From a virus: a DNA stretch of 64,000 nucleotides. Shown one piece after another: positions 7,775 through 44,381 of the stretch. The position numbers and the translations under genes were made by a program. Every line of letters begins with the position of its first letter. Position 1 is the stretch's first letter. The stretch spans positions 46,289 to 110,288 of the IMG/VR virus record IMGVR_UViG_3300027973_000032. The stretch is one strand, 5' to 3'. Below the pieces are notes generated by a model, which saw only the letters and a list, made by a program, of their open reading frames with translations, had not been told where the DNA came from and did no database searches.

Positions 7775-7826
7775 TTGTTTCGTTCATAATAGTTATTGAA
7801 ATCATAATTAGGAGGTTCTGAAGGTT

Positions 7827-7944
7827 AGAACAGTCATTCAGTCCAGAACTATCGTACGAATCAGAACTATTCTGGAGACTAGAACGTTCTGAAGGCTAGA
7901 ACTATCATGCGGATCAGAACTATTCTGGATTTCAGAACAATTGT
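7827..7944. repeat. 18-bp iteron-like array
   Basis: AGAAC starts at 7827, 7845, 7863, 7881, 7898, 7916 and 7934: seven direct units with an 18-bp period and one 17-bp step. The unit consensus is about AGAACTATYNTRSGRNTC. Some units contain the inverted form GTTCT beside AGAAC. The single 17-bp step breaks any reading frame, which argues against a coding repeat. The array lies upstream of the first early promoter cassette in gene-free DNA (7775-8127), a typical place for an origin, operator or protein-loading array. Confidence 0.75.
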
Positions 7945-8127
7945 CGCGGAAAAACAACGAAGGTGCAGGAAAACAACACCGGTTGACAGAATTCTCCTTT
8001 TCCAATCCAAACTCATTCTGGAATTCATAATGACCAAACCTGTTAGGCAGCCTCGCCGTCCACCCCCAGTATGCCTGTTCGAACACATGCTCATATTATA
8101 GCTGAATCACTGTGGGCCGTCAATAGT

Positions 8128-8193
8128 GTTGCAGATTCACAACAGTAGTGAAAAAACAACAGCATTGACGTAGCCCCCAACTGACACTATAAT
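8128..8193 (+). promoter_or_regulatory. promoter-hairpin cassette 1
   Basis: GTTG/CAAC hairpin (8128-8143), a second CAAC-rich segment, then TTGACG (8165-8170), a 17-bp spacer and TATAAT (8188-8193). Seven bases after the -10 box an ATG (8200) begins the conserved leader that ends ACAGGAGCACAAG before the gene at 8227. Confidence 0.8.
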
Positions 8194-8226
8194 AACAACA
8201 TGGCGACACAGACACAGGAGCACAAG

Positions 8227-8556
8227 ATGCAAGTCACAGCAAAGATTCTTCTCTTAGACCCAGAGTACATGGGCCAGTTCTACTTCAAACCTAACCCACG
8301 TGAGACTGCACGAGAGCTGTTGGCCAAGGACCTTTACACTGAGCAAGGCCAGTTCACGCTGAACGTCACTGACAGTGAAGACGCGGCGGAGTTCTTGTTC
8401 GATCTTACCAACAATCCCAGCAAGGATGACTTGCGGGCTGTACTGTACGGACGTGGTCGTTCGCTCAGTGTGGGCGACATTGTTGACGTAGACGGTGAGC
8501 TTTTGCTCTGTGCTAACACGGGATGGCAGCGTGTTGCATACGCACAACAGGCTTGA
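8227..8556 (+). CDS. hypothetical early protein with RSLSVGDIV motif
   Basis: A 109-residue protein. An in-frame ATG at 8200 lies at the predicted transcription start. I chose 8227 because it follows AGGAG at proper spacing and the same leader precedes unrelated genes. The C-terminal third contains GRGRSLSVGDIVDVDGELL, similar to the RSLSVGD block of YodL-like/antirestriction-associated phage proteins. The last residues, AYAQQA, are encoded by the hairpin and -35 box of the next cassette. Function unknown. Confidence 0.65.
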   Translation: MQVTAKILLLDPEYMGQFYFKPNPRETARELLAKDLYTEQGQFTLNVTDSEDAAEFLFDLTNNPSKDDLRAVLYGRGRSLSVGDIVDVDGELLLCANTGWQRVAYAQQA

Positions 8557-8581
8557 CGTAGGGCCGCAAAGGCCTTATACT
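8532..8581 (+). promoter_or_regulatory. promoter-hairpin cassette 2
   Basis: TGTTG (8532-8536) and CAACA (8545-8549) form the hairpin. Then TTGACG (8553-8558), a 17-bp spacer containing GGCC-rich palindromic sequence, and TATACT (8576-8581). The hairpin and -35 box are the last codons of the preceding gene. An ATG starts at 8588, seven bases after the -10 box. Confidence 0.8.
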
Positions 8582-8610
8582 AAGAACATGGACACAAAGG
8601 AGCGAACGAT

Positions 8611-8814
8611 ATGATGGCAGGATTTAGTACTATGGCCAGTTTGGCGGCCAGTCGTGTGCGGCTATTAATGCAACAGACGGACATGGAACGTCCAGCTGAT
8701 TTGATTGCAGATATTATGCACTACTGTAAGGCAGAGGGCATTGAGTTTGATGCTGAAGTCAATGTGGCCGAATTGTACGTGTCAGAAGAAGAAGGATATG
8801 ATGATGCAAATTGA
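8611..8814 (+). CDS. hypothetical early protein
   Basis: A 67-residue protein read from ATG 8611 or 8614, behind AAAGGAGCG. The leader ATG at 8588 is out of frame here, which supports the downstream start. It contains LIADIMHYCKAEGIEFDAEV, a segment common in small phage proteins of unknown function, and ends in an acidic tail (EEEGYDDAN). It overlaps the next gene in a different frame. Confidence 0.6.
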   Translation: MMAGFSTMASLAASRVRLLMQQTDMERPADLIADIMHYCKAEGIEFDAEVNVAELYVSEEEGYDDAN

Positions 8815-9019
8815 TGGCCTAACAGATGAGCAATACGAGATTGCCGAAACTCTTTGGAACTGTGAAACAGAAGACGAAGTTAGGGAAGTCATTGACCAAA
8901 TTGGCAGTGAAGCATATAGTGTATACCAATTGATGGTGGCCGCACACTTTGATGAGAATTGTACTGATGTCAGTGAAGCGGCGGAGTATTTAAATTCAAT
9001 TAGGGGATGTTATGAGTAA
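8804..9019 (+). CDS. hypothetical acidic early protein
   Basis: A 71-residue protein (MQIDGLTDEQYEIAETLW start). Three ATGs stand in a row (8798, 8801, 8804). The last has the best spacing from the GAAGGA ribosome site. Highly acidic and probably all-helical. Overlaps neighbours on both sides by about 10 bases (upstream stop, downstream ATG). No recognised domain. Confidence 0.55.
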   Translation: MQIDGLTDEQYEIAETLWNCETEDEVREVIDQIGSEAYSVYQLMVAAHFDENCTDVSEAAEYLNSIRGCYE

Positions 9020-9272
9020 GCTTGCATTCATTGGTAGGCCTTGGGTTGCATTTGATGCAGCCAATGCTAATCATCGTCAACAGTTTGCACAATTCCAACG
9101 TTTGGGTACTTGGGGTAAGTGTCCAGTTCGTTTTATTATTTCAGATGATCACGGCGACTTAATCACTATGATACAGCGACGACTTATTGAGTATTACATC
9201 AATCAGGAGTTTGGTCGCAGTGAGTTCCTCCGTCGTACAAATACAACGGCTGTTGACACAAAGACAGCCTGA
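9012..9272 (+). CDS. hypothetical early protein
   Basis: An 86-residue protein, MSKLAFIGRPWVAFDAAN at the start, basic in its second half. Its last codons (TTAVDTKTA) are encoded by the operator-like inverted repeat and -35 box of the next cassette, so the C-terminus has been shaped by cassette sequence. No known family. Confidence 0.55.
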   Translation: MSKLAFIGRPWVAFDAANANHRQQFAQFQRLGTWGKCPVRFIISDDHGDLITMIQRRLIEYYINQEFGRSEFLRRTNTTAVDTKTA

Positions 9273-9281
9273 CGTTATACT
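9248..9281 (+). promoter_or_regulatory. promoter cassette 3 with -35 inverted repeat
   Basis: TTGACA (9253-9258), 17-bp spacer, TATACT (9276-9281). An inverted repeat GGCTGT (9248-9253) and ACAGCC (9264-9269) brackets the -35 box. The usual GTTG/CAAC hairpin is degenerate here (GTACAAATACAAC just upstream). The leader is the GAAACAGTAACGCAACGGAG type. Confidence 0.75.
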
Positions 9282-9311
9282 ATTGAAACAGTAACGCAAC
9301 GGAGCAAAGAT

Positions 9312-9596
9312 ATGTGGACCACAGACAATCAACGTGAACTGAGTGCGGCACTTGACCTCATGTATGAGGACCAAGGAGCCCAATTCACTTCAGGCTATGC
9401 TAACAGCTTGGCAGTAGAGATGTTGAACTCCTTGCCCAAACGCCGGCAAAAAGAATTCATCAAACAGGTACAGACCTTCAATGGTCGTCAGCTGGTCAAA
9501 GTAAAGCATCTGTTGACTGGTGCTGAGGTAGAGATCCGTAGGAGTGAGCGTGGTACCTGTGTTGACCCCAGCACGGAACGGTATCACACTATGTGA
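9312..9596 (+). CDS. hypothetical early protein
   Basis: A 94-residue protein behind the conserved leader and CGGAG ribosome site. It has an N-terminal helix (LSAALDLMYEDQ), a basic central segment (LPKRRQKEFIKQVQTF) and a KVKHLLTGAEVEI strand that resembles a short beta barrel. No recognised family. Expressed from cassette 3. Confidence 0.55.
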   Translation: MWTTDNQRELSAALDLMYEDQGAQFTSGYANSLAVEMLNSLPKRRQKEFIKQVQTFNGRQLVKVKHLLTGAEVEIRRSERGTCVDPSTERYHTM

Positions 9597-9597
9597 T

Positions 9598-9646
9598 GTT
9601 GTATGCATACAACGGCCTAGACAAACTGGGCCGTTGAAGTTATACT
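9598..9646 (+). promoter_or_regulatory. promoter-hairpin cassette 4
   Basis: Perfect palindrome GTTGTATGCATACAAC (9598-9613). Then AACGGCC (9611-9617) and GGCCGTT (9629-9635) form a 7-bp inverted repeat spanning TAGACA (9618-9623). A 17-bp spacer and TATACT (9641-9646) follow. The leader matches that of cassette 3 almost base for base. Confidence 0.85.
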
Positions 9647-9677
9647 AATGAAACAGTAACGCAACGGAGCAACAAAG

Positions 9678-9911
9678 ATGGCAAATTCCAGATTCCCAAA
9701 CATGAGCTATTGTATGTGTGAGAATACAGTAGCGGCCCTAGTCCAGATTATTGAGCACATGGACGAGGATCCTGAGAACTTCCTGCAAGACTTGAGCATG
9801 ACGGAATTGAATTCGTTCAATCGTTTATACGAGCTCTGCAAAGAGTTTCGTAGGACTGCGGACTTTGTTGCTGAAATTGCCGATGAACTTGCATTATCAA
9901 CTGAGGAGTAA
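9678..9911 (+). CDS. conserved phage hypothetical protein
   Basis: A 77-residue acidic protein with MSYCMCENTVAALVQIIEH near the start. SYCMxENT-type starts occur in many small phage proteins of unknown role. First gene of a three-gene unit whose members are each introduced by GAGTAATTAGC before the ATG, an internal repeat of the ribosome-site region. Confidence 0.6.
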   Translation: MANSRFPNMSYCMCENTVAALVQIIEHMDEDPENFLQDLSMTELNSFNRLYELCKEFRRTADFVAEIADELALSTEE

Positions 9912-9916
9912 TTAGC

Positions 9917-10111
9917 ATGAACTTGACATATAAAGATCTCAAAGACTTTTTAGAAACTCTTACTGCCGAGCAATTGGCCTGTAATGTGTCTGTATATACT
10001 GGAGACACTGACGAAGCCTATCCTGTATTTGCCGCTGGGTTTAATACTAAAGAGGAAATGGGCGAAGAGTTAGATACATTAGATCCTGGCCATCCTATTC
10101 TATTGTTTTAA
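9917..10111 (+). CDS. conserved phage hypothetical protein
   Basis: A 64-residue protein (MNLTYKDLKDFLETLTAEQL), with the ATG directly behind GAGGAGTAATTAGC. The pattern 'Ylely-helix, then VSVYTGDTDEAYPV, then HPILLF' resembles small phage proteins of about 65 residues that recur beside nucleotide-metabolism and early genes. Function unknown. Confidence 0.6.
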   Translation: MNLTYKDLKDFLETLTAEQLACNVSVYTGDTDEAYPVFAAGFNTKEEMGEELDTLDPGHPILLF

Positions 10112-10123
10112 GGAGTAATTAGC

Positions 10124-10417
10124 ATGAACGCAGATCAAATTGCCAAATCCATTCGTTTCACGCCCTGGACCAATGACGACCTTACCAAATTCGTTGATGC
10201 TGTCAAGTATGCGCGAGCCCAATTGGTTCGTAATAACATTAGGGAATTCGTTGAAGGCGATGCTGTTCGTTTTAACAGTCGTAAACACGGCCTTATTGGT
10301 GGCATTGTAGAGCATGTGGCAATTAAGTATGTCACAGTCCGTAGTCCAGTAGGCTTATTCCGTGTGCCAGCTAACATGCTGACACGGCGTGAACAACCAA
10401 TGGTTGCCTTTGCCTAA
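10124..10417 (+). CDS. KOW-like small protein
   Basis: A 97-residue protein with the same AAGGAGTAATTAGC upstream sequence as its neighbour. The C-terminal half, VEGDAVRFNSRKHGLIGGIV through RVPANML, reads like a KOW/SH3-type barrel (a GDxVxF strand, a basic turn, G-x-I-x-x-V). Such barrels often bind RNA or ribosomes. That fold is a guess from sequence pattern. Confidence 0.55.
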   Translation: MNADQIAKSIRFTPWTNDDLTKFVDAVKYARAQLVRNNIREFVEGDAVRFNSRKHGLIGGIVEHVAIKYVTVRSPVGLFRVPANMLTRREQPMVAFA

Positions 10418-10419
10418 TT

Positions 10420-10468
10420 GTTGTAAGAACGCAACGGGCTAGACACACTGGCCCAACGATAGTATACT
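10420..10468 (+). promoter_or_regulatory. promoter-hairpin cassette 5
   Basis: Hairpin GTTG(10420-10423)...CAAC(10432-10435), GGGC/GCCC inverted repeat around TAGACA (10440-10445), 17-bp spacer, TATACT (10463-10468). Followed by the GAAACAGTAACGCAACGGAG leader. Confidence 0.8.
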
Positions 10469-10497
10469 AGTGAAACAGTAACGCAACGGAGCACGTG

Positions 10498-10662
10498 ATG
10501 AAGAAAGGCATTTACCTTACAGTAGAGCAGACAGTAGAGATTCTCAGTAACACAGATTCGTTTGTGTTGGAAGAGATCTTAGAGCGATTGGTTGAGAGTG
10601 ATCCAGGCACTGCCTACGTGATTCAAACCATTCTCAATAACTTGGAAAAGGAAATGGCATGA
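10498..10662 (+). CDS. small hypothetical protein
   Basis: A 54-residue gene (MKKGIYLTVEQTVEILSN) behind CGGAGCACGTG. It contains two predicted helices and an acidic middle (LEEILERLVESDPG). The leader, ribosome site and ATGA overlap with the next gene support it. No family recognised. Confidence 0.6.
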   Translation: MKKGIYLTVEQTVEILSNTDSFVLEEILERLVESDPGTAYVIQTILNNLEKEMA

Positions 10663-10751
10663 GCGGTGACAAAGGTGATCGCATGGTAGCCATTGCAATG
10701 GCTGCATGTTTTGCTGTTCTTACTTGTTTGACTATTAAAGGATATCTATAA
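10659..10751 (+). CDS. tiny membrane peptide
   Basis: A 30-residue frame (MSGDKGDRMVAIAMAAC, then a hydrophobic FAVLTCLTIKG end). It is linked by ATGA to the gene before and by TAATG to the gene after, which is the reason to list it. One membrane helix. Could also serve only to couple translation between its neighbours. Confidence 0.45.
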   Translation: MSGDKGDRMVAIAMAACFAVLTCLTIKGYL

Positions 10752-11227
10752 TGGGTACTCGTAGCCGCATTGGTGTTAAGGTCAATGGTGTATACCTCAG
10801 CGTATATTGTCATTGGGATGGTTATGCAGAACATAACGGTGCAATCCTTATGGCTCACTACAATGATCAGGCCCGGGTTGAAGAGCTTGTATGCATGGGC
10901 GATATGAGCACGCTAGGCAAAGACATTGGTGAGAAGCATGGCTTTAGCAGCCGTGACATGGATATCCCATACGAGAAGTTTGAAGAACTCTATGGCGATA
11001 TGTGTACCTTTTACGGACGTGATCGAGACGAAACTGATGTAGGCTTTAAGACTGCTGCCACTGTTAAAGACTTCCTTGACCAATGTGAAAGCTGTGGTGC
11101 TGAATACTACTACATCTTCAACAATGGTGAATGGCTATATGGTAGCCTACATGAACGTGACGACGAGTACTATACGTTCGTTTCGTTGCGTACGGTATTT
11201 GCCAAGAAAGAAAGGGAAGCAGCATGA
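10751..11227 (+). CDS. conserved phage protein, MGTRSRIG family
   Basis: A 158-residue protein starting MGTRSRIGVKVNGVYLS, with YCHWDGYAEHNGAILMAHY next. This block is widespread in phage and prophage proteins without assigned function. It has clustered aromatic residues and a C-terminal VSLRTVFAKKE tail. Start taken at the ATG that overlaps the membrane peptide stop. Co-transcribed from cassette 5. Confidence 0.7.
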   Translation: MGTRSRIGVKVNGVYLSVYCHWDGYAEHNGAILMAHYNDQARVEELVCMGDMSTLGKDIGEKHGFSSRDMDIPYEKFEELYGDMCTFYGRDRDETDVGFKTAATVKDFLDQCESCGAEYYYIFNNGEWLYGSLHERDDEYYTFVSLRTVFAKKEREAA

Positions 11228-11373
11228 ACTCAGCACAAACAGTAGAAGTCATTGTGCGTCTGTATATTGAAAAGGATGCAGACGTCAATGAAGTATTGCA
11301 AGAGATGGATTACAGTTTCAAGTATCCAGGCATTCTAGCCACAGAGATTGTGGATGTGAACACAGAGATTTGA
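11224..11373 (+). CDS. small hypothetical protein
   Basis: A 49-residue acidic protein (MNSAQTVEVIVRLYIEKDAD), overlapping the previous gene by ATGA. The pattern of strand, helix (VNEVLQEMDYSF) and strand is compatible with a ferredoxin-like half fold. The stop is directly before the hairpin of cassette 6. Confidence 0.6.
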   Translation: MNSAQTVEVIVRLYIEKDADVNEVLQEMDYSFKYPGILATEIVDVNTEI

Positions 11374-11424
11374 CTGTTGTACTCTTACAACAGAGTTGAC
11401 AGGGCGTGGGGTAGGCTATATAAT
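11374..11424 (+). promoter_or_regulatory. promoter-hairpin cassette 6
   Basis: Perfect 8-bp stem CTGTTGTA/TACAACAG with a 4-base loop (11374-11393). TTGACA (11396-11401), 17-bp spacer, TATAAT (11419-11424). This is the best match to consensus in the series and drives the AAA+ ATPase. Confidence 0.88.
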
Positions 11425-11457
11425 ATTGAAACTGTAACAAAGAGTTGGAGCAAATAG

Positions 11458-12333
11458 ATGCCTAAGATGATCACTATGGAGACCATGCAGTTAAAAAAAG
11501 CACCCGTTCGCACAGAGAGCCTTGCACAAGAACCAAGTAAGAAGGTTCTCAAAGAGACTGATGACCAAATCAAAAGTCGTCTACGTGAACGTTTCCAAGT
11601 ACTTGAAGACATGACTCGTGCCGTAAAGAAAGGCCAAGTACGAGCAATGATTGTAAGTGGTCCACCTGGAGTGGGCAAGAGCTTTGGTGTTGAAGCTGTA
11701 TTAAGTAAACACGACACAATGGCCAATATCGCTGGCAATGAAAAGCTCAAAAAGTATGAAGTAGTCAAAGGTGCAATGAGTGCATTGGGTCTCTACAAGA
11801 AGCTGTTTGAGTTTAGTGGCACAAAGAATATCCTTGTGTTCGATGACTGTGATAGTGTATTGTTAGATGACTTGTCGCTGAACATTCTCAAAGCAGCATT
11901 GGACAGTGGCAAGAAGCGTATGATTCACTGGAATACGGAGAGTCATGCATTGAATAGAGATGGCATTCCAGACAGCTTTGAGTTTAAAGGTGGTGCAATC
12001 TTTATCACCAATATCAAGTTTGACAATGTAAAGAGTCGCAAACTGCGTGACCATTTAGAAGCATTGGAGAGCCGTTGCCATTATTTGGACCTGACCATTG
12101 ACACTGATCGTGAGAAGATCTTACGTATTAGACAGATCATTGAAGATGGCATGTTAGATGAGTATGAGTTTGGTGATGATGGACGTGAAGCCGTTATTCA
12201 CTTCATTGACACTCACAAGACTGAATTGCGTGAGTTGTCATTGCGTATGGTATTAAAGATTGCAGATCTCAAAGCATCGTTCCCAGACCGTTGGGAGAAT
12301 GTTGCAAAGATGACTTGTATGCGTCGTAATTAA
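11458..12333 (+). CDS. AAA+ ATPase
   Basis: A 291-residue protein. Walker A GPPGVGKS is at residues 68-75 and Walker B ILVFDDCD at about 125-132, followed by a GGAIFITN segment of sensor-1 type. The C-terminal part is helical (lid-like). Closest in architecture to small AAA+ proteins of phages and plasmids that remodel or load partners. The partner is unknown here. It is the largest early gene, has the strongest cassette promoter, and is followed by a double terminator, so it forms a single-gene unit. A role in replication or transcription takeover is plausible but unproven. Confidence 0.8.
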   Translation: MPKMITMETMQLKKAPVRTESLAQEPSKKVLKETDDQIKSRLRERFQVLEDMTRAVKKGQVRAMIVSGPPGVGKSFGVEAVLSKHDTMANIAGNEKLKKYEVVKGAMSALGLYKKLFEFSGTKNILVFDDCDSVLLDDLSLNILKAALDSGKKRMIHWNTESHALNRDGIPDSFEFKGGAIFITNIKFDNVKSRKLRDHLEALESRCHYLDLTIDTDREKILRIRQIIEDGMLDEYEFGDDGREAVIHFIDTHKTELRELSLRMVLKIADLKASFPDRWENVAKMTCMRRN

Positions 12334-12341
12334 TTCCCGTC

Positions 12342-12398
12342 AAAAACTCGTCGCTCCCGAGTTTTTGAATCCCCCGTCGCTCCCGGGGGATTTTTTTT
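12342..12398 (+). terminator. tandem rho-independent terminators with identical loops
   Basis: Hairpin 1: AAAAACTCG / CGAGTTTTT (12342-12350 and 12358-12366). Hairpin 2: TCCCCCG / CGGGGGA (12370-12376 and 12384-12390), then eight T. Both have the same 7-base loop TCGCTCC. They end the AAA+ unit. Confidence 0.85.
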
Positions 12399-12399
12399 G

Positions 12400-12448
12400 G
12401 TTGCATAGAAACAACACCATTGACTGAACTACTCAAAGGCACTATACT
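12400..12448 (+). promoter_or_regulatory. promoter-hairpin cassette 7
   Basis: GTTG (12400-12403) and CAAC (12412-12415) hairpin, TTGACT (12420-12425), 17-bp spacer, TATACT (12443-12448). An ATG at 12455 falls seven bases after the -10 box. Confidence 0.8.
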
Positions 12449-12481
12449 AAGAACATGGACAAAACGAAACTGGAGTACAAG

Positions 12482-12724
12482 ATGGCACGTAAGCAAACCA
12501 ACTACCTTTTGGAACTCATCGACAGCGGCATGCTCAGTGCTGATGACGTCGTTACTATGGCACTCAAGTACATGAGTGAAGACGAAGTCGCTGACATGAT
12601 GCGGGTTAACGACATCCTTGTTGAAGACGATGAAGAGTTTGGGGACGACGATGATCAGGCAGAAGAATGGCACGACAGCGTCAGCGAGTCACAAGAATGG
12701 CACGACTACGACGAAGATTGTTGA
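12482..12724 (+). CDS. hypothetical acidic early protein
   Basis: An 80-residue protein (MARKQTNYLLELIDSGMLS). The in-frame ATG at 12455 coincides with the predicted transcription start and has no ribosome site, so I take 12482. It contains ALKYMSEDEVADMMR, common in small phage proteins, and a very acidic tail (EEFGDDDDQAEEW). Function unknown. Confidence 0.62.
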   Translation: MARKQTNYLLELIDSGMLSADDVVTMALKYMSEDEVADMMRVNDILVEDDEEFGDDDDQAEEWHDSVSESQEWHDYDEDC

Positions 12725-12725
12725 T

Positions 12726-12774
12726 GTTGTAAGCATACAACGGGCTTGCTCAAAAGGCCCGTTGGAGTTATACT
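12726..12774 (+). promoter_or_regulatory. promoter-hairpin cassette 8
   Basis: GTTGTA-AGCA-TACAAC hairpin (12726-12741). A perfect 8-bp inverted repeat CAACGGGC (12738-12745) and GCCCGTTG (12757-12764) spans a poor -35 (TTGCTC, 12746-12751). 17-bp spacer, TATACT (12769-12774), ATG at 12781. Confidence 0.78.
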
Positions 12775-12801
12775 AAGAGCATGGACACACAGGAGCACAA
12801 G

Positions 12802-12957
12802 ATGAAGACAGACAAAGCACAACAGGCCGTAATCCAACTGCTTAAGAGCAAGTTGGCTCGGGAAGACGAAGCAACGGTAAAGGCTGCTTTCTTTAACGTG
12901 TTCAAAGACATTGATCAGAAGTTGGCTCGTGTACTGTGGCTGGAGGCAAAGGTATGA
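12802..12957 (+). CDS. small hypothetical protein
   Basis: A 51-residue basic, helical protein (MKTDKAQQAVIQLLKSKLAR). An ATG in frame 21 bases upstream (12781) sits at the predicted +1; the AGGAGCACAAG ribosome site favours 12802. Overlaps the next gene by ATGA. No family recognised. Confidence 0.58.
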   Translation: MKTDKAQQAVIQLLKSKLAREDEATVKAAFFNVFKDIDQKLARVLWLEAKV

Positions 12958-13094
12958 CCGCACAAGAATTGATTGACTTGTTGACGAAGTTAGATCCCAA
13001 TAAAGAGATACTGATCTATGATGGATCGTGGGATCAAAACAAGTCAATCAGCGAAGTAGAAGTTAACGAAGACGGCGACGTCGTTATTTGGTAA
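12954..13094 (+). CDS. small hypothetical protein
   Basis: A 46-residue acidic protein, MTAQELIDLLTKLDPNKEIL followed by a GSWDQNKS turn and VVIW end. The helix plus DPNKEI(L/V) strand pattern recurs in small phage proteins (compare the gene at 9917, which starts with a similar helix). Function unknown. Coupled to the preceding gene. Confidence 0.58.
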   Translation: MTAQELIDLLTKLDPNKEILIYDGSWDQNKSISEVEVNEDGDVVIW

Positions 13095-13104
13095 GGAGAA
13101 CATA

Positions 13105-13308
13105 ATGGCACGAATGAAAGAACTTTACGAAGATGTTAGGGAAATGTTCGAACAGGGCCTTAGCGATGCAGCCATTGCCTATGCCACTGGTCAACCCATT
13201 GAATTGATACAAGACTGCACGGCGCAGTTCATTGACGAAGATGAAGAAGGCTTTGACTTCGACCAAGTGGCTGCGGATGACTTTTCCTTCGACGAAATAG
13301 AGTATTAA
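13105..13308 (+). CDS. hypothetical acidic early protein
   Basis: A 67-residue protein with a strong ribosome site (AAGGAG). The N-terminal half is a possible helix-turn-helix (LYEDVREMFEQGLSDAAIAY, then ATGQPIELI). The C-terminal third is extremely acidic (DEDEEGFDFDQ). A DNA-mimic or host-factor-binding role could be imagined but is not shown. Confidence 0.6.
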   Translation: MARMKELYEDVREMFEQGLSDAAIAYATGQPIELIQDCTAQFIDEDEEGFDFDQVAADDFSFDEIEY

Positions 13309-13313
13309 AAAAA

Positions 13314-13350
13314 CAACAGGCTTGCTCAAACTGCCTGTTGATAGTATACT
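13314..13350 (+). promoter_or_regulatory. promoter cassette 9
   Basis: CAACAGG (13314-13320) and CCTGTTG (13334-13340) form a 7-bp inverted repeat across the -35 region (TTGCTC, 13322-13327). 17-bp spacer, TATACT (13345-13350), ATG at 13357. The upstream half of the usual hairpin is missing (only A-tract plus ACAAC). Confidence 0.72.
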
Positions 13351-13377
13351 AAGAACATGGCAACACAGGAGCACAAG

Positions 13378-13593
13378 ATGGGGTACAAGGTGGTAGCAGA
13401 CAAGTACCAAATGGACATGATGCGTGAGAAATACGGCCCACGCAAAGGTCTGGAAGGTCCCTTCAACTTCAGTGGCCGTGTTCTTTACTACGATGTCCGA
13501 GAAGGCTCCTACTACGACCCACGTACAGACTTCTACGTGGCTCAGGACGAAATGACGTCAATCCACAACCAACTACTGGACAAGATGCGATGA
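13378..13593 (+). CDS. hypothetical early protein
   Basis: A 71-residue protein (MGYKVVADKYQMDMMREKYG). I take 13378, behind AGGAGCACAAG, rather than the in-frame ATG at 13357. Rich in tyrosine and charged residues; no recognised domain. Overlaps the next gene by ATGA. Confidence 0.6.
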   Translation: MGYKVVADKYQMDMMREKYGPRKGLEGPFNFSGRVLYYDVREGSYYDPRTDFYVAQDEMTSIHNQLLDKMR

Positions 13594-13829
13594 ACTGGAA
13601 CAAAGAAGGCCAACAGGTTGCTGGAGTGTACTTGGGTGCCTACACCGTCACTGGTGTGGTTCAAAGCAGCCGTGTCAAATACGGCGGCAAGGTCCAACAC
13701 CGCGTCCTGCTAGACAAGCCCGTTATGGTGTTTGGCCGTGAGGCAGAGGAACTCCTGTTGGACGACGAAGAACTGTTCACCAAACCCCGTAAGGGCATGA
13801 TGGATGTTGTATTTGAACAACAGGCTTGA
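13590..13829 (+). CDS. hypothetical early protein ending in QQA
   Basis: A 79-residue protein. The centre (VYLGAYTVTGVVQSSRVKYG) and the following basic segment look like a small beta barrel. The last codons (VVFEQQA) and the stop are formed by the hairpin and -35 box of the next cassette, exactly as in the unrelated gene ending at 8556. Function unknown. Confidence 0.6.
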   Translation: MNWNKEGQQVAGVYLGAYTVTGVVQSSRVKYGGKVQHRVLLDKPVMVFGREAEELLLDDEELFTKPRKGMMDVVFEQQA

Positions 13830-13854
13830 CGATTTGAGCAGCCGACGTTATACT
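13805..13854 (+). promoter_or_regulatory. promoter-hairpin cassette 10
   Basis: TGTTG (13805-13809) and CAACA (13818-13822) hairpin, TTGACG (13826-13831), 17-bp spacer, TATACT (13849-13854), then the TTGAAACAGTA leader. The hairpin and -35 lie in the end of the preceding gene. Confidence 0.82.
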
Positions 13855-13883
13855 ATTGAAACAGTACAGCAAAGGAGCAACTA

Positions 13884-14108
13884 ATGTTCGCAGTAGTAGA
13901 TACCAAAACAGAAGAACCCATTAAGACTTATAAGACATTTAAAGGCGCTGCCATTGCCATGCGAGCAATGAACAAGAAGGCAGGCTTTCCAATACGAATG
14001 ACTCGTTGCTGGACACGCGGACTGAGCTTGGAATGGTGCCGCACAATGAACGATGAATACGAATACGGTCCCTACGCTGTGGGCGGCCAAATCCATTACG
14101 TAGGTTAA
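13884..14108 (+). CDS. hypothetical early protein
   Basis: A 74-residue protein starting MFAVVDTKTEEPIKTYKTFK and continuing with AAIAMRAMNKKAG, a strand-strand-helix pattern seen in several small phage proteins. Slightly basic N-terminal half; a C-terminal GPYAVGGQIHYVG strand. Function unknown. Followed by an AAGGAG ribosome site for the next gene. Confidence 0.6.
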   Translation: MFAVVDTKTEEPIKTYKTFKGAAIAMRAMNKKAGFPIRMTRCWTRGLSLEWCRTMNDEYEYGPYAVGGQIHYVG

Positions 14109-14118
14109 GGAGAATACA

Positions 14119-14607
14119 ATGCCTAATTGGTGTAATAATACTGTCACTATCAAACATAGTGACCCAAAGATGATTGCTCGTGTACGCGATGCCTTTGAAC
14201 AAGAACGGCTGTGCAATGAGTTCCTTCCCAATCCCAATGGTGAATGGTCGTGGGAACACTCGGTGAACACTTGGGGAACCAAATGGGAAATTGCCGGAGA
14301 GATTGACAGCATTGAAGACGGAGTAGTCCTCACCTTTGATAGTGCATGGGCTCCCCCAATTGGCCTATACGAAAAGCTCTACTCACTGGGCTATGAAGTC
14401 ACTGCTCGTTACTATGAACCAGGTATGGCCTTTGCCGGCACATACGAAGATGGTAGCGATGACTGCTACGACTACAGTGGCATGAATGCTGATGAGATTG
14501 AAAAGTACCTCCCAGAAGAACTGGACCAGTACTTTGGCATCAGCGAGACTGTGAGTCAGTGGGAAGAAGAAAACAACGAAGAAACGGTTGACAGCAACGA
14601 CGATTGA
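14119..14607 (+). CDS. Api92-like ferredoxin-fold protein
   Basis: A 162-residue protein that begins MPNWCNNTVTIKHSDP and has the WSWEHSVNTWGTKWE and FDSAWAPPIGLYEKL blocks of the Api92-like (DUF1281-type) family. Members occur in phages, plasmids and some bacteria; the fold is ferredoxin-like and the function unknown. The acidic tail (EEENNEETVDSNDD) contains the -35 box of a weak promoter for the next gene. Confidence 0.75.
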   Translation: MPNWCNNTVTIKHSDPKMIARVRDAFEQERLCNEFLPNPNGEWSWEHSVNTWGTKWEIAGEIDSIEDGVVLTFDSAWAPPIGLYEKLYSLGYEVTARYYEPGMAFAGTYEDGSDDCYDYSGMNADEIEKYLPEELDQYFGISETVSQWEEENNEETVDSNDD

Positions 14608-14616
14608 TGTTACTAT
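14588..14616 (+). promoter_or_regulatory. probable promoter without hairpin
   Basis: TTGACA (14588-14593), 17 bp, TACTAT (14611-14616), inside and just after the end of the Api92-like gene. No GTTG/CAAC hairpin and a leader unlike the others, so less certain. Confidence 0.5.
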
Positions 14617-14661
14617 ATTGATACTGCGAAAGCACGTACACACACTAAAAGGAAATTGAAA

Positions 14662-15057
14662 ATGGCTACTGATAAGACTTTTACCGTTGCAGGTGTATCC
14701 AAACACAAAGGCGAATACAAGGTTCGCTTTGCCAATGATGTTATGCGAGTTAAGGTACTGACTAAAGGCGGACACGAAGATATTCGTCTTGTTGAACTAG
14801 ACGAACCCCTCTCCAAGCTTGATGCAGTTCTGGCAATTAAGAACATGACTGAGTTCGCAGACGTCAATGCACAGAATGCATTTTTGGAATACGTTGAACG
14901 TAATGTGCCAGCTGCCAAACCAGAAAGCACACCCTCTGCTACCAAAACCAAAGCAGTCGTTGCTAAGGCAAAGGTAAGTACAGTGACCCCACAAGTGCCT
15001 GCACTGAAAGGCATGACCCCGTTGGGTTTTAAAGATGTAGAGGACGCACCGTTTTAA
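14662..15057 (+). CDS. conserved phage protein with Ala/Lys/Thr tail
   Basis: A 131-residue protein (MATDKTFTVAGVSKHKGEYK). The ATG at 14662 has AAAGGA at good spacing and is preferred over a TTG two codons upstream. Residues 1-90 look like a compact beta-rich domain. A flexible linker rich in Ala, Lys, Thr and Pro follows, and a short conserved end (GMTPLGFKDVEDAPF) that looks like a linear interaction motif. Similar two-part small proteins occur in T4-like phages. Partner unknown. Confidence 0.62.
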   Translation: MATDKTFTVAGVSKHKGEYKVRFANDVMRVKVLTKGGHEDIRLVELDEPLSKLDAVLAIKNMTEFADVNAQNAFLEYVERNVPAAKPESTPSATKTKAVVAKAKVSTVTPQVPALKGMTPLGFKDVEDAPF

Positions 15058-15058
15058 T

Positions 15059-15247
15059 ATGAGCTGGGAAATGTACGAAGTCTGGGCCGTTGACCTCAAC
15101 GGTCACGAGACACTGATCGACACTACTAAAGACATCAAACGAGCAAGGCTACTGGCCAGAGAGTCGTTGGATGAAATCAATATAGAATGTATCATCTATA
15201 AAGAGACTGAGGATGGTGAATTAGCATTGGTGGAAAGACTTCAGTGA
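15059..15247 (+). CDS. hypothetical early protein
   Basis: A 62-residue protein (MSWEMYEVWAVDLNGHETLI), starting one base after the previous stop. Strand-turn-strand-helix-strand pattern with an acidic C-terminus. The stop is six bases before the first tRNA, so tRNAs and gene are probably one transcript. Confidence 0.6.
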   Translation: MSWEMYEVWAVDLNGHETLIDTTKDIKRARLLARESLDEINIECIIYKETEDGELALVERLQ

Positions 15248-15253
15248 TGTACG

Positions 15254-15331
15254 GGGCCTCTAGCTCATGTTGGTTAGAGCAGTGGACTCATAATCCATTG
15301 GTGCCGAGTTCGACTCTCGGGGGGCCCACCA
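15254..15331 (+). tRNA. tRNA with CAT anticodon (Ile2 or Met)
   Basis: Full cloverleaf: acceptor GGGCCTC/GGGGCCC (one G-T), D stem GCTC/GAGC, anticodon stem GTGGA/TCCAT with loop CTCATAA, T stem CCGAG/CTCGG, encoded CCA. The CAT anticodon could read ATG or, if modified to lysidine, ATA. The other two phage tRNAs read AT-rich codons, which favours Ile(ATA), but the sequence alone does not decide. Confidence 0.92.
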
Positions 15332-15335
15332 ATTA

Positions 15336-15420
15336 GCCCGGATGGTGAAATAGGTAGACACAAGAGACTTAAAATCTCTCGCCGAAAGGTGTGCCGGTTC
15401 GAGTCCGGCTCCGGGCACCA
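15336..15420 (+). tRNA. tRNA-Leu (TAA)
   Basis: 85 nt with encoded CCA. Acceptor GCCCGGA/TCCGGGC, anticodon stem AGAGA/TCTCT with loop CTTAAAA (anticodon TAA at 15370-15372), a long variable arm typical of class II tRNAs, T loop TTCGAGT. Reads TTA, a frequent codon in the AT-rich late half of the window. Confidence 0.95.
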
Positions 15421-15423
15421 TAT

Positions 15424-15499
<76 letters not shown>

Positions 15500-15516
15500 T
15501 TGATATAACCATGGGG

Positions 15517-15567
15517 GTGTTGTAAAAATACAACACTCTTGCTTTTTTTTACGAGCTGTGCTATAAT
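15517..15567 (+). promoter_or_regulatory. promoter-hairpin cassette 11 (after the tRNAs)
   Basis: Perfect 8-bp hairpin GTGTTGTA-AAAA-TACAACAC (15517-15536), TTGCTT (15539-15544), 17-bp spacer with eight T, TATAAT (15562-15567). The hairpin plus T-run could also end the tRNA transcript, so one element may terminate and restart transcription. Confidence 0.75.
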
Positions 15568-15604
15568 TTACACATACTAAATTAACACACAGAGAGTTCT
15601 AAAA

Positions 15605-15895
15605 ATGCAAAAGCTTACAGCTACACACATTACTAAAATTAATACCATTATGCTTGATACTATTAGCACGTACATTAAACAGTACAACATTGCTAATACT
15701 TACGATCCGCTCTTAATTACGGATACTTTGCATAACACTTATGCATTGCATAAGTTTAATAATACAAAAAACATACAAGAGTTGCATAACGCAATTATTG
15801 CACAAGACACCTTAGTACGCGAGTACTTTGTTAATGTACTTCGTTATATTGAAAATAACAATTTAATCCCTGCTAGCAAATTTTGCTGTAGTTAA
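15605..15895 (+). CDS. hypothetical early protein
   Basis: A 96-residue protein (MQKLTATHITKINTIMLDTI), mostly helical, rich in Asn, Thr and Ile, with a CCS end. Codon use is more A+T-rich than in its neighbours (many ATT, AAT, ACT). The leader (TACACATACTAA, then ACACAGAGAG) is shared only with the gene at 16017, so these two form a third leader class. No family recognised. Confidence 0.6.
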   Translation: MQKLTATHITKINTIMLDTISTYIKQYNIANTYDPLLITDTLHNTYALHKFNNTKNIQELHNAIIAQDTLVREYFVNVLRYIENNNLIPASKFCCS

Positions 15896-15907
15896 AAACG
15901 ATATAAC

Positions 15908-15980
15908 AAGTGTTGCATAAAAACAACACTTGTTGTAATAAAACAACAGCATTGACAAAAACAGATCCAGACACTATAAT
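15908..15980 (+). promoter_or_regulatory. promoter cassette 12 with double hairpin
   Basis: Two adjacent hairpins: AAGTGTTG/CAACACTT (15908-15915, 15924-15931) and TGTTG/CAACA (15931-15935, 15944-15948). Then TTGACA (15952-15957), 17-bp spacer and TATAAT (15975-15980), both perfect consensus. Confidence 0.85.
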
Positions 15981-16016
15981 ATACACATACTTAGTTAACA
16001 CAGAGAGAGAAAGAAA

Positions 16017-16265
16017 ATGGCTACAATGGCAAACGTATACAAACGTATTATTATTAACTGCTACGGCAAAATTTATGCACGAGGCGATGCAGGCTTAGAC
16101 TACATGGATAGGCATGAGGCAATGCTTGCAGACGATTTAGATGTGCTAATGCAACATGTATATAACGATGAGTTAGATACTGTTAGCACAGATAAATTAC
16201 GTGCGCTTGCAGATGCATTGCAAGTCGTTGTCTACGACGCTGAGTTTGACTTAGAGTCTTTTTAA
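16017..16265 (+). CDS. hypothetical early protein
   Basis: An 82-residue acidic, helical protein (MATMANVYKRIIINCYGKIY). Start at 16017 behind GAGAGAGAAAGAAA; a second ATG lies three codons in. It contains DKLRALADALQVVVYDAEFD. No known family. Same leader class as the gene at 15605. Confidence 0.6.
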   Translation: MATMANVYKRIIINCYGKIYARGDAGLDYMDRHEAMLADDLDVLMQHVYNDELDTVSTDKLRALADALQVVVYDAEFDLESF

Positions 16266-16278
16266 TACAGGTACTATA

Positions 16279-16341
16279 ATGCAAGGCCAATGGATTTGCG
16301 TCAATGGCAAATGGATCTTTATTAGAGACAACGAACAATGA
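16279..16341 (+). CDS. possible 20-residue leader peptide
   Basis: A tiny frame (MQGQWICVNGKWIFIRDNEQ) that overlaps the next gene by ATGA. Size and position suggest translational coupling rather than a functional protein; the composition (two WI motifs) is not random-looking. Low certainty. Confidence 0.3.
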   Translation: MQGQWICVNGKWIFIRDNEQ

Positions 16342-16649
16342 ATAAAGTTATTAGAGATGGATTTGTTGCAGTACTATACAGCCCAGGCTACGGCGCAGGT
16401 TGGTATACTTGGCATAACATTCCAGAACTCATATACGATCCAACTATAGTTGAAATGATTGAACAGGGTCGTCTCAACGACGTCGAAGCTTATTGCGAAC
16501 TCACATACCCCTCCTTTACCAAATGCTATATGGGCGCATCTGATCTCGAGATCAGCTGGATTAAAGAAGGTCGCGTATTCCTTATAGAAGAATACGACGG
16601 CAACGAAAGCATCCGCTTCAGAGAAGACATCCACTGGCTTGTTGCTTAA
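16338..16649 (+). CDS. conserved phage hypothetical protein
   Basis: A 103-residue protein beginning MNKVIRDGFVAVLYSPGYGA and continuing GWYTWHNIPELIYDPTIVE. The VAVLYSPGYGAGWYTW block is common in phage-encoded proteins of unknown function. The final codons LVA and the stop fall in the hairpin of the next cassette. Confidence 0.7.
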   Translation: MNKVIRDGFVAVLYSPGYGAGWYTWHNIPELIYDPTIVEMIEQGRLNDVEAYCELTYPSFTKCYMGASDLEISWIKEGRVFLIEEYDGNESIRFREDIHWLVA

Positions 16650-16689
16650 CTACAACAGGGTAGACATAGGGCCCAACTGGCCGTATAAT
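16640..16689 (+). promoter_or_regulatory. promoter-hairpin cassette 13
   Basis: TGTTG (16640-16644) and CAACA (16653-16657) hairpin, TAGACA (16661-16666), a 17-bp spacer containing GGGCCC and TATAAT (16684-16689). An ATG at 16695 is six bases after the -10 box, out of frame with the gene. Confidence 0.82.
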
Positions 16690-16722
16690 TACTACATGGA
16701 CAAAGCAAACAAGGAGCAGGCA

Positions 16723-17097
16723 ATGAGCGAATACACTTACAAGAGCTGGGACGAGTACACTCCATTGGAGCAGGCTGCCATGACCTGGTGGGATATGTAC
16801 AAGGACGCCTACGGCGTTCGCCCACGTGGCACAGACACCAGCTCCTGGACACTGGAGAAGTTTGAGAGTGAATTCAAGTACCTCCAGGACGTGATCCACT
16901 GCAACGAACGCCAACGTGAACTGGACGAGGCCTTCAACATCAAACGGTTTGAAGAGCGCGTGGCCAAAGTCATTGAACTGGGTGCCAAAGACCGCGCAAT
17001 GGCCCTGCGTTGGATCCACGAGGCTGAAGGCAGCAACGGCGACGACGAATACCTTTGCTTCTGCGTTGGCGTTCCATACGGCTATATTAAATCTTAA
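16723..17097 (+). CDS. hypothetical early protein
   Basis: A 124-residue helical, charged protein (MSEYTYKSWDEYTPLEQAAM). ATG 16723 follows AAGGAGCAGGCA; upstream in-frame starts fall inside the cassette and are rejected. Several tryptophans in the first third (WWDMYKDAYG). It resembles small phage proteins only in general layout. Function unknown. Confidence 0.6.
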   Translation: MSEYTYKSWDEYTPLEQAAMTWWDMYKDAYGVRPRGTDTSSWTLEKFESEFKYLQDVIHCNERQRELDEAFNIKRFEERVAKVIELGAKDRAMALRWIHEAEGSNGDDEYLCFCVGVPYGYIKS

Positions 17098-17118
17098 TCC
17101 TAAACTGAGGACTACGCA

Positions 17119-17364
17119 ATGACTGCATCACAGAAACAACAGGCCTTCCAGGAAATCATTAGCTGGCTAATGTGGCGTAAAGACACTAGGAAATGTAAGT
17201 CTGTAACACGTAAGGCCATTGTATCCTATTACGAAGCTGTCAGTAAACAGATCACTGGCGTATTTGAAATAAAGGTACTAGAGGCTACCCATATGAACTC
17301 ACTGGCGCAGGCCACAGGCGGCGTCTATGTCGTATCCAAGCACAAAGGCAGTATCAAATACTAG
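17119..17364 (+). CDS. hypothetical early protein
   Basis: An 81-residue basic protein (MTASQKQQAFQEIISWLMWR), helix-rich, with a C-terminal strand pair (GGVYVVSKHKGSIKY). Second gene of the cassette 13 unit, behind TGAGGACTACGCA. No family recognised. Confidence 0.58.
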   Translation: MTASQKQQAFQEIISWLMWRKDTRKCKSVTRKAIVSYYEAVSKQITGVFEIKVLEATHMNSLAQATGGVYVVSKHKGSIKY

Positions 17365-17365
17365 T

Positions 17366-17414
17366 GTTGTAATAGCACAACGGGCTAGACATCATAGCCC
17401 ACCGATGCTATACT
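17366..17414 (+). promoter_or_regulatory. promoter-hairpin cassette 14
   Basis: GTTG/CAAC hairpin (17366-17381), inverted repeat GGGCTA (17382-17387) and TAGCCC (17395-17400) overlapping TAGACA (17386-17391), 17-bp spacer, TATACT (17409-17414), TTGAAACTGTAAC leader. Confidence 0.82.
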
Positions 17415-17442
17415 ATTGAAACTGTAACAAAGGAACAACGCA

Positions 17443-17778
17443 ATGACTACTACTGCTAACATCCCCGCACTCCACGTTGAAGCCTCACGTAAGGCAGCTG
17501 AGAAGGCACGTGAACTAAACGCTACACTGGGACAAGCTTGGCCCTGTGGCTTTGCTTGGGTTAACATCAGCGGCGTTAAGCTGAGCACTAGGCAAGGCAA
17601 GGAGTTTGCCAAGCTGGGCTTCCGTAAAGCATACGGCTACCCCAACACTGTACAACTGTGGAACCCCAGCGGACACCCTACACAGAACATGGACGTGAAG
17701 GAGATGGCTGCTGATGTTTACGCTGAAGTGTTTCGTCAAGCTGGCTTCAATGCTTTTGCCGGCTCGCGTATGGATTGA
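17443..17778 (+). CDS. hypothetical early protein
   Basis: A 111-residue protein (MTTTANIPALHVEASRKAAE). An N-terminal helix is followed by CGFAWVNISGVKLSTRQGK, a segment found in small phage proteins that pair a helix with a beta-hairpin. A C-terminal helix ends FNAFAGSRMD. It is the last gene of the early block and is followed by a strong terminator. Function unknown. Confidence 0.62.
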   Translation: MTTTANIPALHVEASRKAAEKARELNATLGQAWPCGFAWVNISGVKLSTRQGKEFAKLGFRKAYGYPNTVQLWNPSGHPTQNMDVKEMAADVYAEVFRQAGFNAFAGSRMD

Positions 17779-17809
17779 TTGTGCTCGCGTTTGTTTGGTA
17801 AATCCCTTT

Positions 17810-17835
17810 AACTCCACTTCGGTGGAGTTTTTTTT
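17810..17835 (+). terminator. rho-independent terminator (TTCG loop)
   Basis: Perfect 8-bp stem AACTCCAC/GTGGAGTT with a stable TTCG tetraloop, followed by a run of T. It ends the early (+) block. A GGTGGTGGTG-rich stretch follows to about 17861. Confidence 0.92.
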
Positions 17836-17878
17836 GGTGGTGGTGATGATAGGTGGTGGTGGCTTATAAAAAGAAAAA

Positions 17879-17898
17879 CTGTTGTAAAAAAACAACAG
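17879..17898. repeat. orphan cassette hairpin CTGTTG/CAACAG
   Basis: CTGTTG (17879-17884), 8-base loop, CAACAG (17893-17898), the same hairpin as in the promoter cassettes, but no -35/-10 pair at the usual distance. It may be a decayed cassette, or the hairpin half alone, next to the HNH gene. Confidence 0.6.
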
Positions 17899-18024
17899 CT
17901 ACTAGCACCCCCAAAAAAGGACCCATATAGGCGAAAACACCCCCTGGAAACTCTAAGTACTTTGTAGCAATTTTTCGTAGCGCAGAAAAAAAGAGTGCAG
18001 GGCCCATTTCAGCTAACTAGTATT

Positions 18025-44372: not shown

Positions 44373-44381
44373 AATTAATTC

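What the first reader, a model, noticed from the sequence alone, without database searches (positions are those of the whole stretch)
8128..17898. Fourteen copies of a promoter-hairpin cassette organise the early region
Intergenic regions repeat the same order: a GTTG(TA/CA)-loop-(TA)CAAC hairpin, a few bases, a -35 box (TTGAC, TAGACA or TTGCTC), exactly 17 bp, then TATACT or TATAAT, then one of three conserved leaders. I count copies at 8128, 8532, 9248 (hairpin degenerate), 9598, 10420, 11374, 12400, 12726, 13314 (half hairpin), 13805, 15517, 15908, 16640 and 17366, plus an orphan hairpin at 17879. They precede unrelated genes. Known family: PeSL mobile promoter stem-loop cassettes described in T4-type phages. 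The 17-bp spacing was kept in all copies while the sequence around it drifts.
Basis: partly seen in the sequence, partly recalled or inferred. Interest (0 to 1): 0.75.

Follow-up and report, generated by a model that had tools for sequence, protein, structure and literature searches.

The report
Repeated palindrome-plus-promoter units in phage
An uncultured phage carries 14 copies of a ready-made gene switch (a bacterial-type promoter with a short palindrome set exactly 4 bases in front of it), and related palindromes sit in front of promoters in more than a hundred other uncultured phages; they look like docking sites for an unidentified DNA-binding protein rather than the RNA hairpins first proposed.

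Summary
Window 8.1-17.5 kb has 14 plus-strand sigma70-like promoters, each with CAAC 4 bp (once 5 bp) before the -35 box, then 17 bp, then TATA[AC]T. Eleven have a full GTTG-N8-CAAC palindrome. GTTG-N8-CAAC occurs 14 times there (0.3 expected) and nowhere else in the 110 kb record. One correction: the 8128 palindrome serves a divergent minus-strand promoter with the same geometry.

The "hairpin" is always exactly 16 bp, shows no compensatory pairing in an unbiased set, sits 0-32 bp upstream of -35 boxes and never inside the core promoter. It therefore looks like a dimeric protein's DNA site, not a terminator stem-loop. It is widespread in uncultured phages at other spacings. The strict 4-bp geometry gave 41 viral stretches but only 3 in 257 Gb of bacterial and archaeal genomes. 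At orthologous borders promoters persist while the palindrome comes and goes.

A second, covarying inverted repeat spans the -35 box in several copies and in relatives; it is the better PeSL analogue. Weak -35 variants (TAGACA) at this geometry were found in no other viral contig, suggesting local amplification. The binding protein and the direction of regulation are unknown.

The parts
8128..8143 (-). Palindrome GTTG-N8-CAAC belonging to the divergent minus-strand promoter
8095..8123 (-). Divergent sigma70-like promoter TTGACG-17-TATAAT, 4 bp from the 8128 palindrome
8157..8193 (+). Unit 1: half-site CAAC, -35 TTGACG (8165), -10 TATAAT (8188-8193), leader class A
8533..8581 (+). Unit 2: palindrome 8533-8548, -35 TTGACG 8553, -10 TATACT 8576-8581; palindrome lies in the 3' coding end of the ORF ending at 8556
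9244..9281 (+). Unit 3: half-site CAAC, 5-bp gap, -35 TTGACA 9253, -10 TATACT; GGCTGT/ACAGCC stem spans the -35
9598..9646 (+). Unit 4: palindrome 9598-9613 starting 1 bp after the upstream stop, -35 TAGACA 9618, -10 TATACT
9610..9636 (+). Second inverted repeat spanning the -35: CAACGGCC/GGCCGTTG (8 bp)
10420..10468 (+). Unit 5: palindrome 10420-10435, -35 TAGACA 10440, -10 TATACT
11376..11424 (+). Unit 6: palindrome 11376-11391, -35 TTGACA 11396, -10 TATAAT; upstream of the nrdC.10-like AAA ATPase (11458-12333)
12400..12448 (+). Unit 7: palindrome 12400-12415, -35 TTGACT 12420, -10 TATACT; follows a terminator-like hairpin pair at about 12340-12397
12726..12774 (+). Unit 8: palindrome 12726-12741, -35 TTGCTC 12746, -10 TATACT
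12738..12764 (+). Second inverted repeat spanning the -35: CAACGGGC/GCCCGTTG (8 bp)
13314..13350 (+). Unit 9: half-site CAAC, -35 TTGCTC 13322, -10 TATACT
13314..13340 (+). Second inverted repeat spanning the -35: CAACAGGC/GCCTGTTG (8 bp)
13806..13854 (+). Unit 10: palindrome 13806-13821 inside the 3' coding end of the ORF ending at 13829, -35 TTGACG 13826, -10 TATACT
15519..15567 (+). Unit 11: palindrome 15519-15534 (stem extended to 13 bp with a T-run, terminator-like), -35 TTGCTT 15539, -10 TATAAT
15912..15927 (+). Extra tandem palindrome 4 bp before the next one; no promoter of its own
15932..15980 (+). Unit 12: palindrome 15932-15947, -35 TTGACA 15952, -10 TATAAT
16641..16689 (+). Unit 13: palindrome 16641-16656 overlapping the upstream stop, -35 TAGACA 16661, -10 TATAAT
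17366..17414 (+). Unit 14: palindrome 17366-17381 starting 1 bp after the upstream stop, -35 TAGACA 17386, -10 TATACT
17864..18018 (+). Different composite holding the 17881-17896 palindrome: TATAAA - palindrome - AAGTACTT (17955) - ATTTTT - GGGCCCATT; no sigma70-like promoter
2382..2651 (+). HTH_39 winged-helix protein (90 aa): candidate, untested, for the palindrome-binding factor

Best explanation
Each unit is a host-RNA-polymerase (sigma70-type) promoter with a conserved leader, in front of which sits an 18-bp palindromic operator, TGTTGYA-N4-TRCAACA, read by a dimeric sequence-specific DNA-binding protein. In this phage the operator is locked 4 bp upstream of the -35 box (dyad centre near -47), so the block at 8-18 kb forms one co-regulated set of at least a dozen small operons plus a divergent transcript. 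The bound dimer most likely acts on RNA polymerase from upstream, as activators and UP-type elements do, rather than by covering the promoter. Shown here: the sequences, their non-chance number and geometry, the upstream-only placement, the lack of RNA-type covariation, and the phage-biased distribution of the 4-bp geometry. Inferred: that a protein binds, that it is a dimer, that it contacts polymerase, that the block is early. Unknown: which protein (a conserved winged-helix phage protein at 2382-2651 is a candidate) and whether the effect is positive or negative. The high copy number in this lineage most likely arose by copying one unit between gene borders.
For: Fixed N8 spacing: 14 of 14 in the window; 165 against 20-42 for other spacers of 3-16 bp in 80 relatives chosen by an unrelated gene. 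No pairing covariation at 5/12, 6/11 or 7/10 in 41 unbiased promoter-linked sites, C:A mismatches tolerated, A-tract centre. Placement: in the unbiased relatives 53 of 85 palindrome-promoter pairs have the palindrome centre 10-49 bp before the -35, and none lie within the promoter or the next 40 bp downstream. Gaps in 285 non-redundant pairs run mostly 0-32 bp with maxima at 10, 17 and 20-21. Phage bias: 41 viral stretches against 3 in 257 Gb of bacterial and archaeal genomes for the same 4-bp geometry; 0 of 369 genomes of one bacterial class for the 10-bp geometry with 2 mismatches. Works on both strands (8128). Two full copies lie in translated 3' ends. Local amplification: 4-bp-gap units with TAGACA occur in no other viral contig, with TTGCT in one; pairs of units are up to 74% identical over 80 bp.
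Against: No binding protein is identified and no transcription data exist. Among 167 promoter-linked sites 14 lie in longer stems against 7.5 expected, including 15519-type copies, so some may double as RNA hairpins. In relatives the palindrome accompanies full-consensus -35 boxes, so activation is not obviously needed. Helical phasing of the gap is ambiguous: the best period is 5.3 bp, not 10.5, and shared descent inflates it. Half-site-only copies (8157, 9244, 13314) carry equally good promoters. At the 17881-type element some relatives have different inverted repeats in the same place, which fits a structural role there.
Confidence: 0.62

Rival explanations
1. The palindrome is an RNA stem-loop: a PeSL-type terminator or processing signal that ends or trims upstream transcripts just before the next promoter.
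For: Arms are complementary by definition. 15519 has a 13-bp stem followed by T8 and 15912 a 14-bp stem. A few relatives (L163, L219, L197-type) have the palindrome in a longer stem with a T-run.
Against: Length is always 16 bp; no covariation at inner pairs; C:A mismatches leave a 4-bp stem with an 8-nt loop; outward extension is rare; most copies have no U-tract; two copies lie in translated sequence.
Confidence: 0.12
2. The second inverted repeat, which holds the -35 box in its loop, is the functional stem: a terminator fused with the promoter that insulates each unit from read-through (the true PeSL analogue). The palindrome would then be secondary.
For: Complementarity across the -35 exceeds re-pairing controls: window mean longest stem 4.4 against 3.6 (p 0.002); 261 relatives' promoters without palindrome 3.62 against 3.46 (0 of 300 permutations). 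Compensatory series GGCC/GGCC, GGGC/GCCC, AGGC/GCCT; loop often 11 nt. Forms such as AAAGACCC-TACGGTTGACT-GGGTCTT occur in relatives.
Against: Strong in only 3-5 of 14 window copies. No enrichment of T after the stems (2.87 against 2.66 of 8). It does not explain the conserved GTTG..CAAC sequence.
Confidence: 0.2
3. The units are mainly recombination modules: short shared homology at gene borders that lets the phage shuffle small genes, with the palindrome kept as homology or as a nuclease or recombinase target.
For: Units run almost exactly from stop codon to start codon (several palindromes begin 1-2 bp after the stop; leaders 27-37 nt). Palindrome presence differs at orthologous borders (0/61 upstream of the ATPase, 9/36, 6/34, 7/22).
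Against: Promoters and leaders at orthologous borders are conserved (33/34, 35/36, 20/22) as expected of vertical descent. No rearrangement with breakpoints in the units was demonstrated. Identity between copies is at most 74%.
Confidence: 0.2
4. The palindrome is the operator of a host regulator that the phages exploit, as cyanophages are thought to do with NtcA sites (PMC3037559).
For: The TTG-N8-CAA spacing equals that of FNR/CRP-type sites (own knowledge). Precedent in cyanophages.
Against: Only 3 hits in 257 Gb of bacterial and archaeal genomes, one of them on a phage-like contig; 0 of 369 genomes of one class. The hosts are unknown, so a host operator at other geometries is not excluded.
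Confidence: 0.15

Closest known systems
PeSL (promoter-early stem-loop) cassettes of T4-type phages (Arbiol 2010; Comeau 2014; papers not held, known through PMC4503421 and own knowledge)
   Same: Repeated composite units with an early-type sigma70-like promoter at many small-gene borders in a plastic region; an inverted repeat is part of the unit.
   Different: The main inverted repeat is a fixed-length palindrome without RNA covariation and is absent from the T4 and KVP40 stretches examined; the stem-loop-like part instead spans the -35 box. Mobility not shown.
17-bp dyad repeat TGTTCGG-N3-CCGAACA of Cluster O mycobacteriophages (PMC4351075)
   Same: Many copies of one short fixed-length palindrome in a phage genome, many in short intergenic gaps, function unknown.
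   Different: Those sites are also in coding sequence and are not reported to be tied to promoters at fixed spacing; here 12 of 14 palindromes adjoin a promoter at 4 bp.
HGTV-1 conserved motif (TATA-like region plus inverted repeat before most left-arm ORFs; PMC3950731)
   Same: Promoter-like element plus inverted repeat before many small genes in one arm, compared by its authors with PeSLs.
   Different: Archaeal virus and archaeal-type promoter; sequence not compared here.
NtcA sites (GTA-N8-TAC) in front of cyanophage genes (PMC3037559)
   Same: Palindromic regulator site upstream of phage promoters.
   Different: Different sequence (inner GTA-N4-TAC here); NtcA is a host activator, whereas no host regulator is known here.

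Membership tests
PeSL cassette (T4-type) | Early sigma70-type promoter in each unit | tested here: met
   14 units, -35/17/TATA[AC]T; early timing itself not testable
PeSL cassette (T4-type) | Stem-loop that acts as a terminator next to the promoter | tested here: inconclusive
   GTTG-N8-CAAC: no RNA covariation, T-run in few copies. -35-spanning repeat: significant pairing but no T-run enrichment
PeSL cassette (T4-type) | Copies dispersed between small variable genes of a plastic region | tested here: met
   Units precede unrelated small ORFs, most without database matches
PeSL cassette (T4-type) | Copies act as sites of recombination that shuffles genes | tested here: inconclusive
   Palindrome presence varies at orthologous borders but promoters are conserved; no breakpoints mapped
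PeSL cassette (T4-type) | Carrier is a T4-type phage | tested here: inconclusive
   nrdC.10-family ATPase shared with T4-like phages; no close named relative for the proteins tried, best NrdA at 61%; capsid genes not examined
PeSL cassette (T4-type) | Same palindrome in the known PeSL phages | tested here: not met
   0 GTTG-N8-CAAC in 25 kb of T4 and 40 kb of KVP40
Sigma70-type promoter | -35 and -10 hexamers near consensus at 16-18 bp | tested here: met
   All spaced 17 bp, hexamer scores 10-12 of 12 in 11 of 14 plus-strand copies
Sigma70-type promoter | Transcription starts about 7 nt after the -10 | not testable with these tools
   needs 5'-end mapping
Dimeric-regulator operator | Fixed half-site spacing and independent half-sites | tested here: met
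   16 bp in all copies; no covariation in 41 unbiased sites
Dimeric-regulator operator | Cognate binding protein | not testable with these tools
   Winged-helix candidate at 2382-2651 only

The most novel reading that the evidence does not exclude
A large, mostly uncultured group of phages shares an unrecognised regulatory code: a TGTTGYA-N4-TRCAACA operator placed upstream of sigma70 promoters and, in a second conserved element, near an AAGTACTT box. It would be read by a phage-encoded winged-helix protein, forming a phage-wide regulon; in this phage the operator-promoter unit was multiplied into a block of 14.
Probability: 0.4. Interest if true: 0.68.

Novelty: new variant of a known kind. 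Interest (0 to 1): 0.55.

Why it matters
Gene control in uncultured phages is almost entirely undescribed. A single palindrome recognisable by eye, tied to promoters in at least a hundred phage contigs and rare at the tested geometry in bacterial genomes, would give a sequence handle for predicting early operons, for finding the regulator that reads it, and for testing the PeSL idea that regulatory units themselves are the movable parts of phage genomes. The finding that the palindrome and the -35-spanning stem are two separate elements turns "promoter-hairpin cassette" into two testable mechanisms.

Tried and rejected
Megablast of the block against named phages gave only tRNA genes. Rfam gave only the three tRNAs. 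Literature searches for the motif letters gave noise, and the two PeSL papers are not held. A helical-phase (10.5 bp) test of the gap: not significant in the first set and only weak in the larger set (p 0.014; best period 5.3 bp), so not used as proof. "Weak -35 rescued by an activator": weak -35 boxes occur in the window, but relatives with the palindrome keep consensus -35 boxes, so not supported. KVP40's seven GTTG-N7-CAAC sites look like coding-sequence coincidences, with no promoter-like sequence next to them. Alternative palindromes found at the AAGTACTT element of some relatives do not reappear before their promoters, so no evidence for operator-specificity groups. A host-operator reading found no support in the genome scans. 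Checking the window's ATPase border: the promoter is usually kept in relatives (43/61) but the palindrome never (0/61).
Full report
WHAT WAS CHECKED. The window is bases 46289-110288 of a 110,288-bp virus record; the rest was read as loci L002-L004. A direct search found 14 plus-strand units CAAC - 4 bp (5 at 9244) - [TTGAC/TAGACA/TTGCT] - 17 bp - TATA[AC]T between 8157 and 17414, plus one on the minus strand at 8131-8095. GTTG-N8-CAAC occurs 14 times in 8-18 kb and nowhere else in the record; Markov simulation expects 0.30 (maximum 3 in 300 runs).

ANATOMY. Eleven plus-strand promoters have the full palindrome; three (8157, 9244, 13314) only the CAAC half. The 8128 palindrome is 13 bp from the 8157 half-site but exactly 4 bp from a divergent minus-strand promoter, so the same geometry is used on both strands. 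Several palindromes begin 1-2 bp after the upstream stop codon (9598, 10420, 11376, 12726, 17366); two full ones (8533, 13806) lie inside the 3' coding end of the preceding ORF; the distance from -10 to the ATG is 27-37 nt. Other strict sigma70-like sites to the left (window 2332 and four in L004) and one at 14588 lack the palindrome, so the palindrome marks a subset, the 8-18 kb block.

IS IT A HAIRPIN? The palindrome is always 16 bp. In 80 relatives collected with an unrelated query (the ATPase), GTTG-N8-CAAC occurs 165 times against 20-42 for other spacers of 3-16 bp. In 41 non-redundant promoter-linked sites from that unbiased set, the mirrored positions 5/12, 6/11 and 7/10 show no excess of pairs over permutation; C:A is as common as expected from independent half-sites. 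The consensus is TGTTGYA-N4-TRCAACA with an A/T-rich, often A-tract, centre. A longer outward stem occurs in 14 of 167 sites against 7.5 expected, so a small minority may double as terminators (15519 here). Palindromes lie upstream of the -35: 53 of 85 pairs have centres 10-49 bp before it, and none fall inside the promoter. This is the signature of a protein-binding site used from upstream. It is inference that a protein binds.

A SECOND INVERTED REPEAT. In several units the sequence between the palindrome and the -35 pairs with the spacer, leaving the -35 in the loop: CAACGGCC/GGCCGTTG (9610), CAACGGGC/GCCCGTTG (12738), CAACAGGC/GCCTGTTG (13314), GGCTGT/ACAGCC (9244). Mean longest stem is 4.4 against 3.6 when spacers are re-dealt (p 0.002); the effect also holds in 261 relatives' promoters that lack the palindrome (3.62 against 3.46, none of 300 permutations). 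The stems vary in sequence with compensatory changes and often have an 11-nt loop, but are not followed by more T than weak ones. This element, not the palindrome, most resembles a PeSL-type composite terminator-promoter. In RNA it excludes the palindrome's own stem in the three 8-bp cases, because both use CAAC.

DISTRIBUTION. The exact 4-bp geometry with TTGAC was found in 41 stretches of viral contigs and in 3 stretches of 257 Gb of bacterial and archaeal genomes, one of them on a contig with three palindromes and a gene start like that of the phage contigs. In 285 non-redundant pairs the gap runs almost entirely 0-32 bp, with maxima at 10, 17 and 20-21. A 10-bp-gap pattern with two mismatches gave 0 of 369 genomes of one bacterial class. 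Named phages examined (parts of T4, KVP40, PA5oct, RcRudolph, Xanthomonas X1, HTVC008M) have none beside a recognisable promoter. Four-bp-gap units with TAGACA occur in no other viral contig, with TTGCT in one, so this phage's version looks like a local amplification.

MOBILE OR INHERITED? For window genes with homologues in the fetched loci, the promoter is usually present at the same border (17443: 33/34; 13378: 35/36; 16723: 20/22; ATPase: 43/61) but the palindrome only sometimes (6/34, 9/36, 7/22, 0/61), mostly at other distances from the -35. Promoters and leaders are therefore mostly inherited, and the upstream element is what is gained, lost or moved. Recombination between units was not demonstrated.

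WHAT BINDS? Unknown. A 90-aa HTH_39 winged-helix protein at 2382-2651 is 42-76% identical in aligned homologues and has matches in 30 fetched loci, is predicted as a winged helix (pLDDT 85) and has only weak, general winged-helix matches in the PDB. It is named as a testable candidate only. Whether the site activates or represses is open: upstream-only placement favours contact with polymerase, but relatives combine the palindrome with full-consensus -35 boxes.

LIMITS. Loci share ancestry, so counts are not independent events; de-duplication thresholds were simple. Early timing is inferred from promoter type only. PeSL features rest on secondary mentions and own knowledge because the original papers are not held.

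Noticed in passing
window 17864-18018; relatives e.g. L190:9662-9846, L211:6191-6375, L240:11089-11273: A second conserved non-coding composite: TATA(A/C)A, palindrome CTGTTG-N8-CAACAG, then AAATCACC, AAGTACTT, T-run, CGCG, AGGACCCATT. In relatives it often lies about 300 bp downstream of the ATPase and is sometimes repeated; some relatives have other inverted repeats in the palindrome's place. Origin, late promoter or small RNA are all possible.
   Followed up: partly
window 21079-22302 (+): 408-aa protein with an N-terminal class III adenylate/guanylate cyclase domain (PF00211 E 2.8e-8, PDB 3mr7 E 8e-22); among the fetched loci only L242 has a homologue. Unusual in a phage.
   Followed up: partly
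window 2382-2651 (+); L423, L060, L243, L168 and others: HTH_39 winged-helix protein conserved across the group; in relatives its 5' UTR carries a short inverted repeat of changing sequence (GCTGTT..AACAGC, GTTGAT..ATCAAC, GTTGG..CCAAC) near the start of transcription.
   Followed up: partly
window 8200, 12455, 12781, 13357, 16696: Leader class A contains an ATG at about the predicted +1 that is in frame with the gene start in five of six units, which could give leaderless N-terminal extensions.
   Followed up: no
window 7809-7942: Imperfect 71-bp tandem repeat rich in AGAAC/TTCTGAA just downstream of the divergent minus-strand promoter; no convincing gene there.
   Followed up: no
L007, L009, L020, L044 and others: Many 4-bp-gap palindromes in other phages stand before a 118-aa protein (MKNLPSVGS..., SWIM-like CxC..CxH end) whose ATG lies about 10 nt after the -10, i.e. 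a nearly leaderless message; no match in named phages.
   Followed up: partly
window 24366-25313, 42786-45836: Carbamoyltransferase-like and two radical-SAM-like genes on the minus strand.
   Followed up: no
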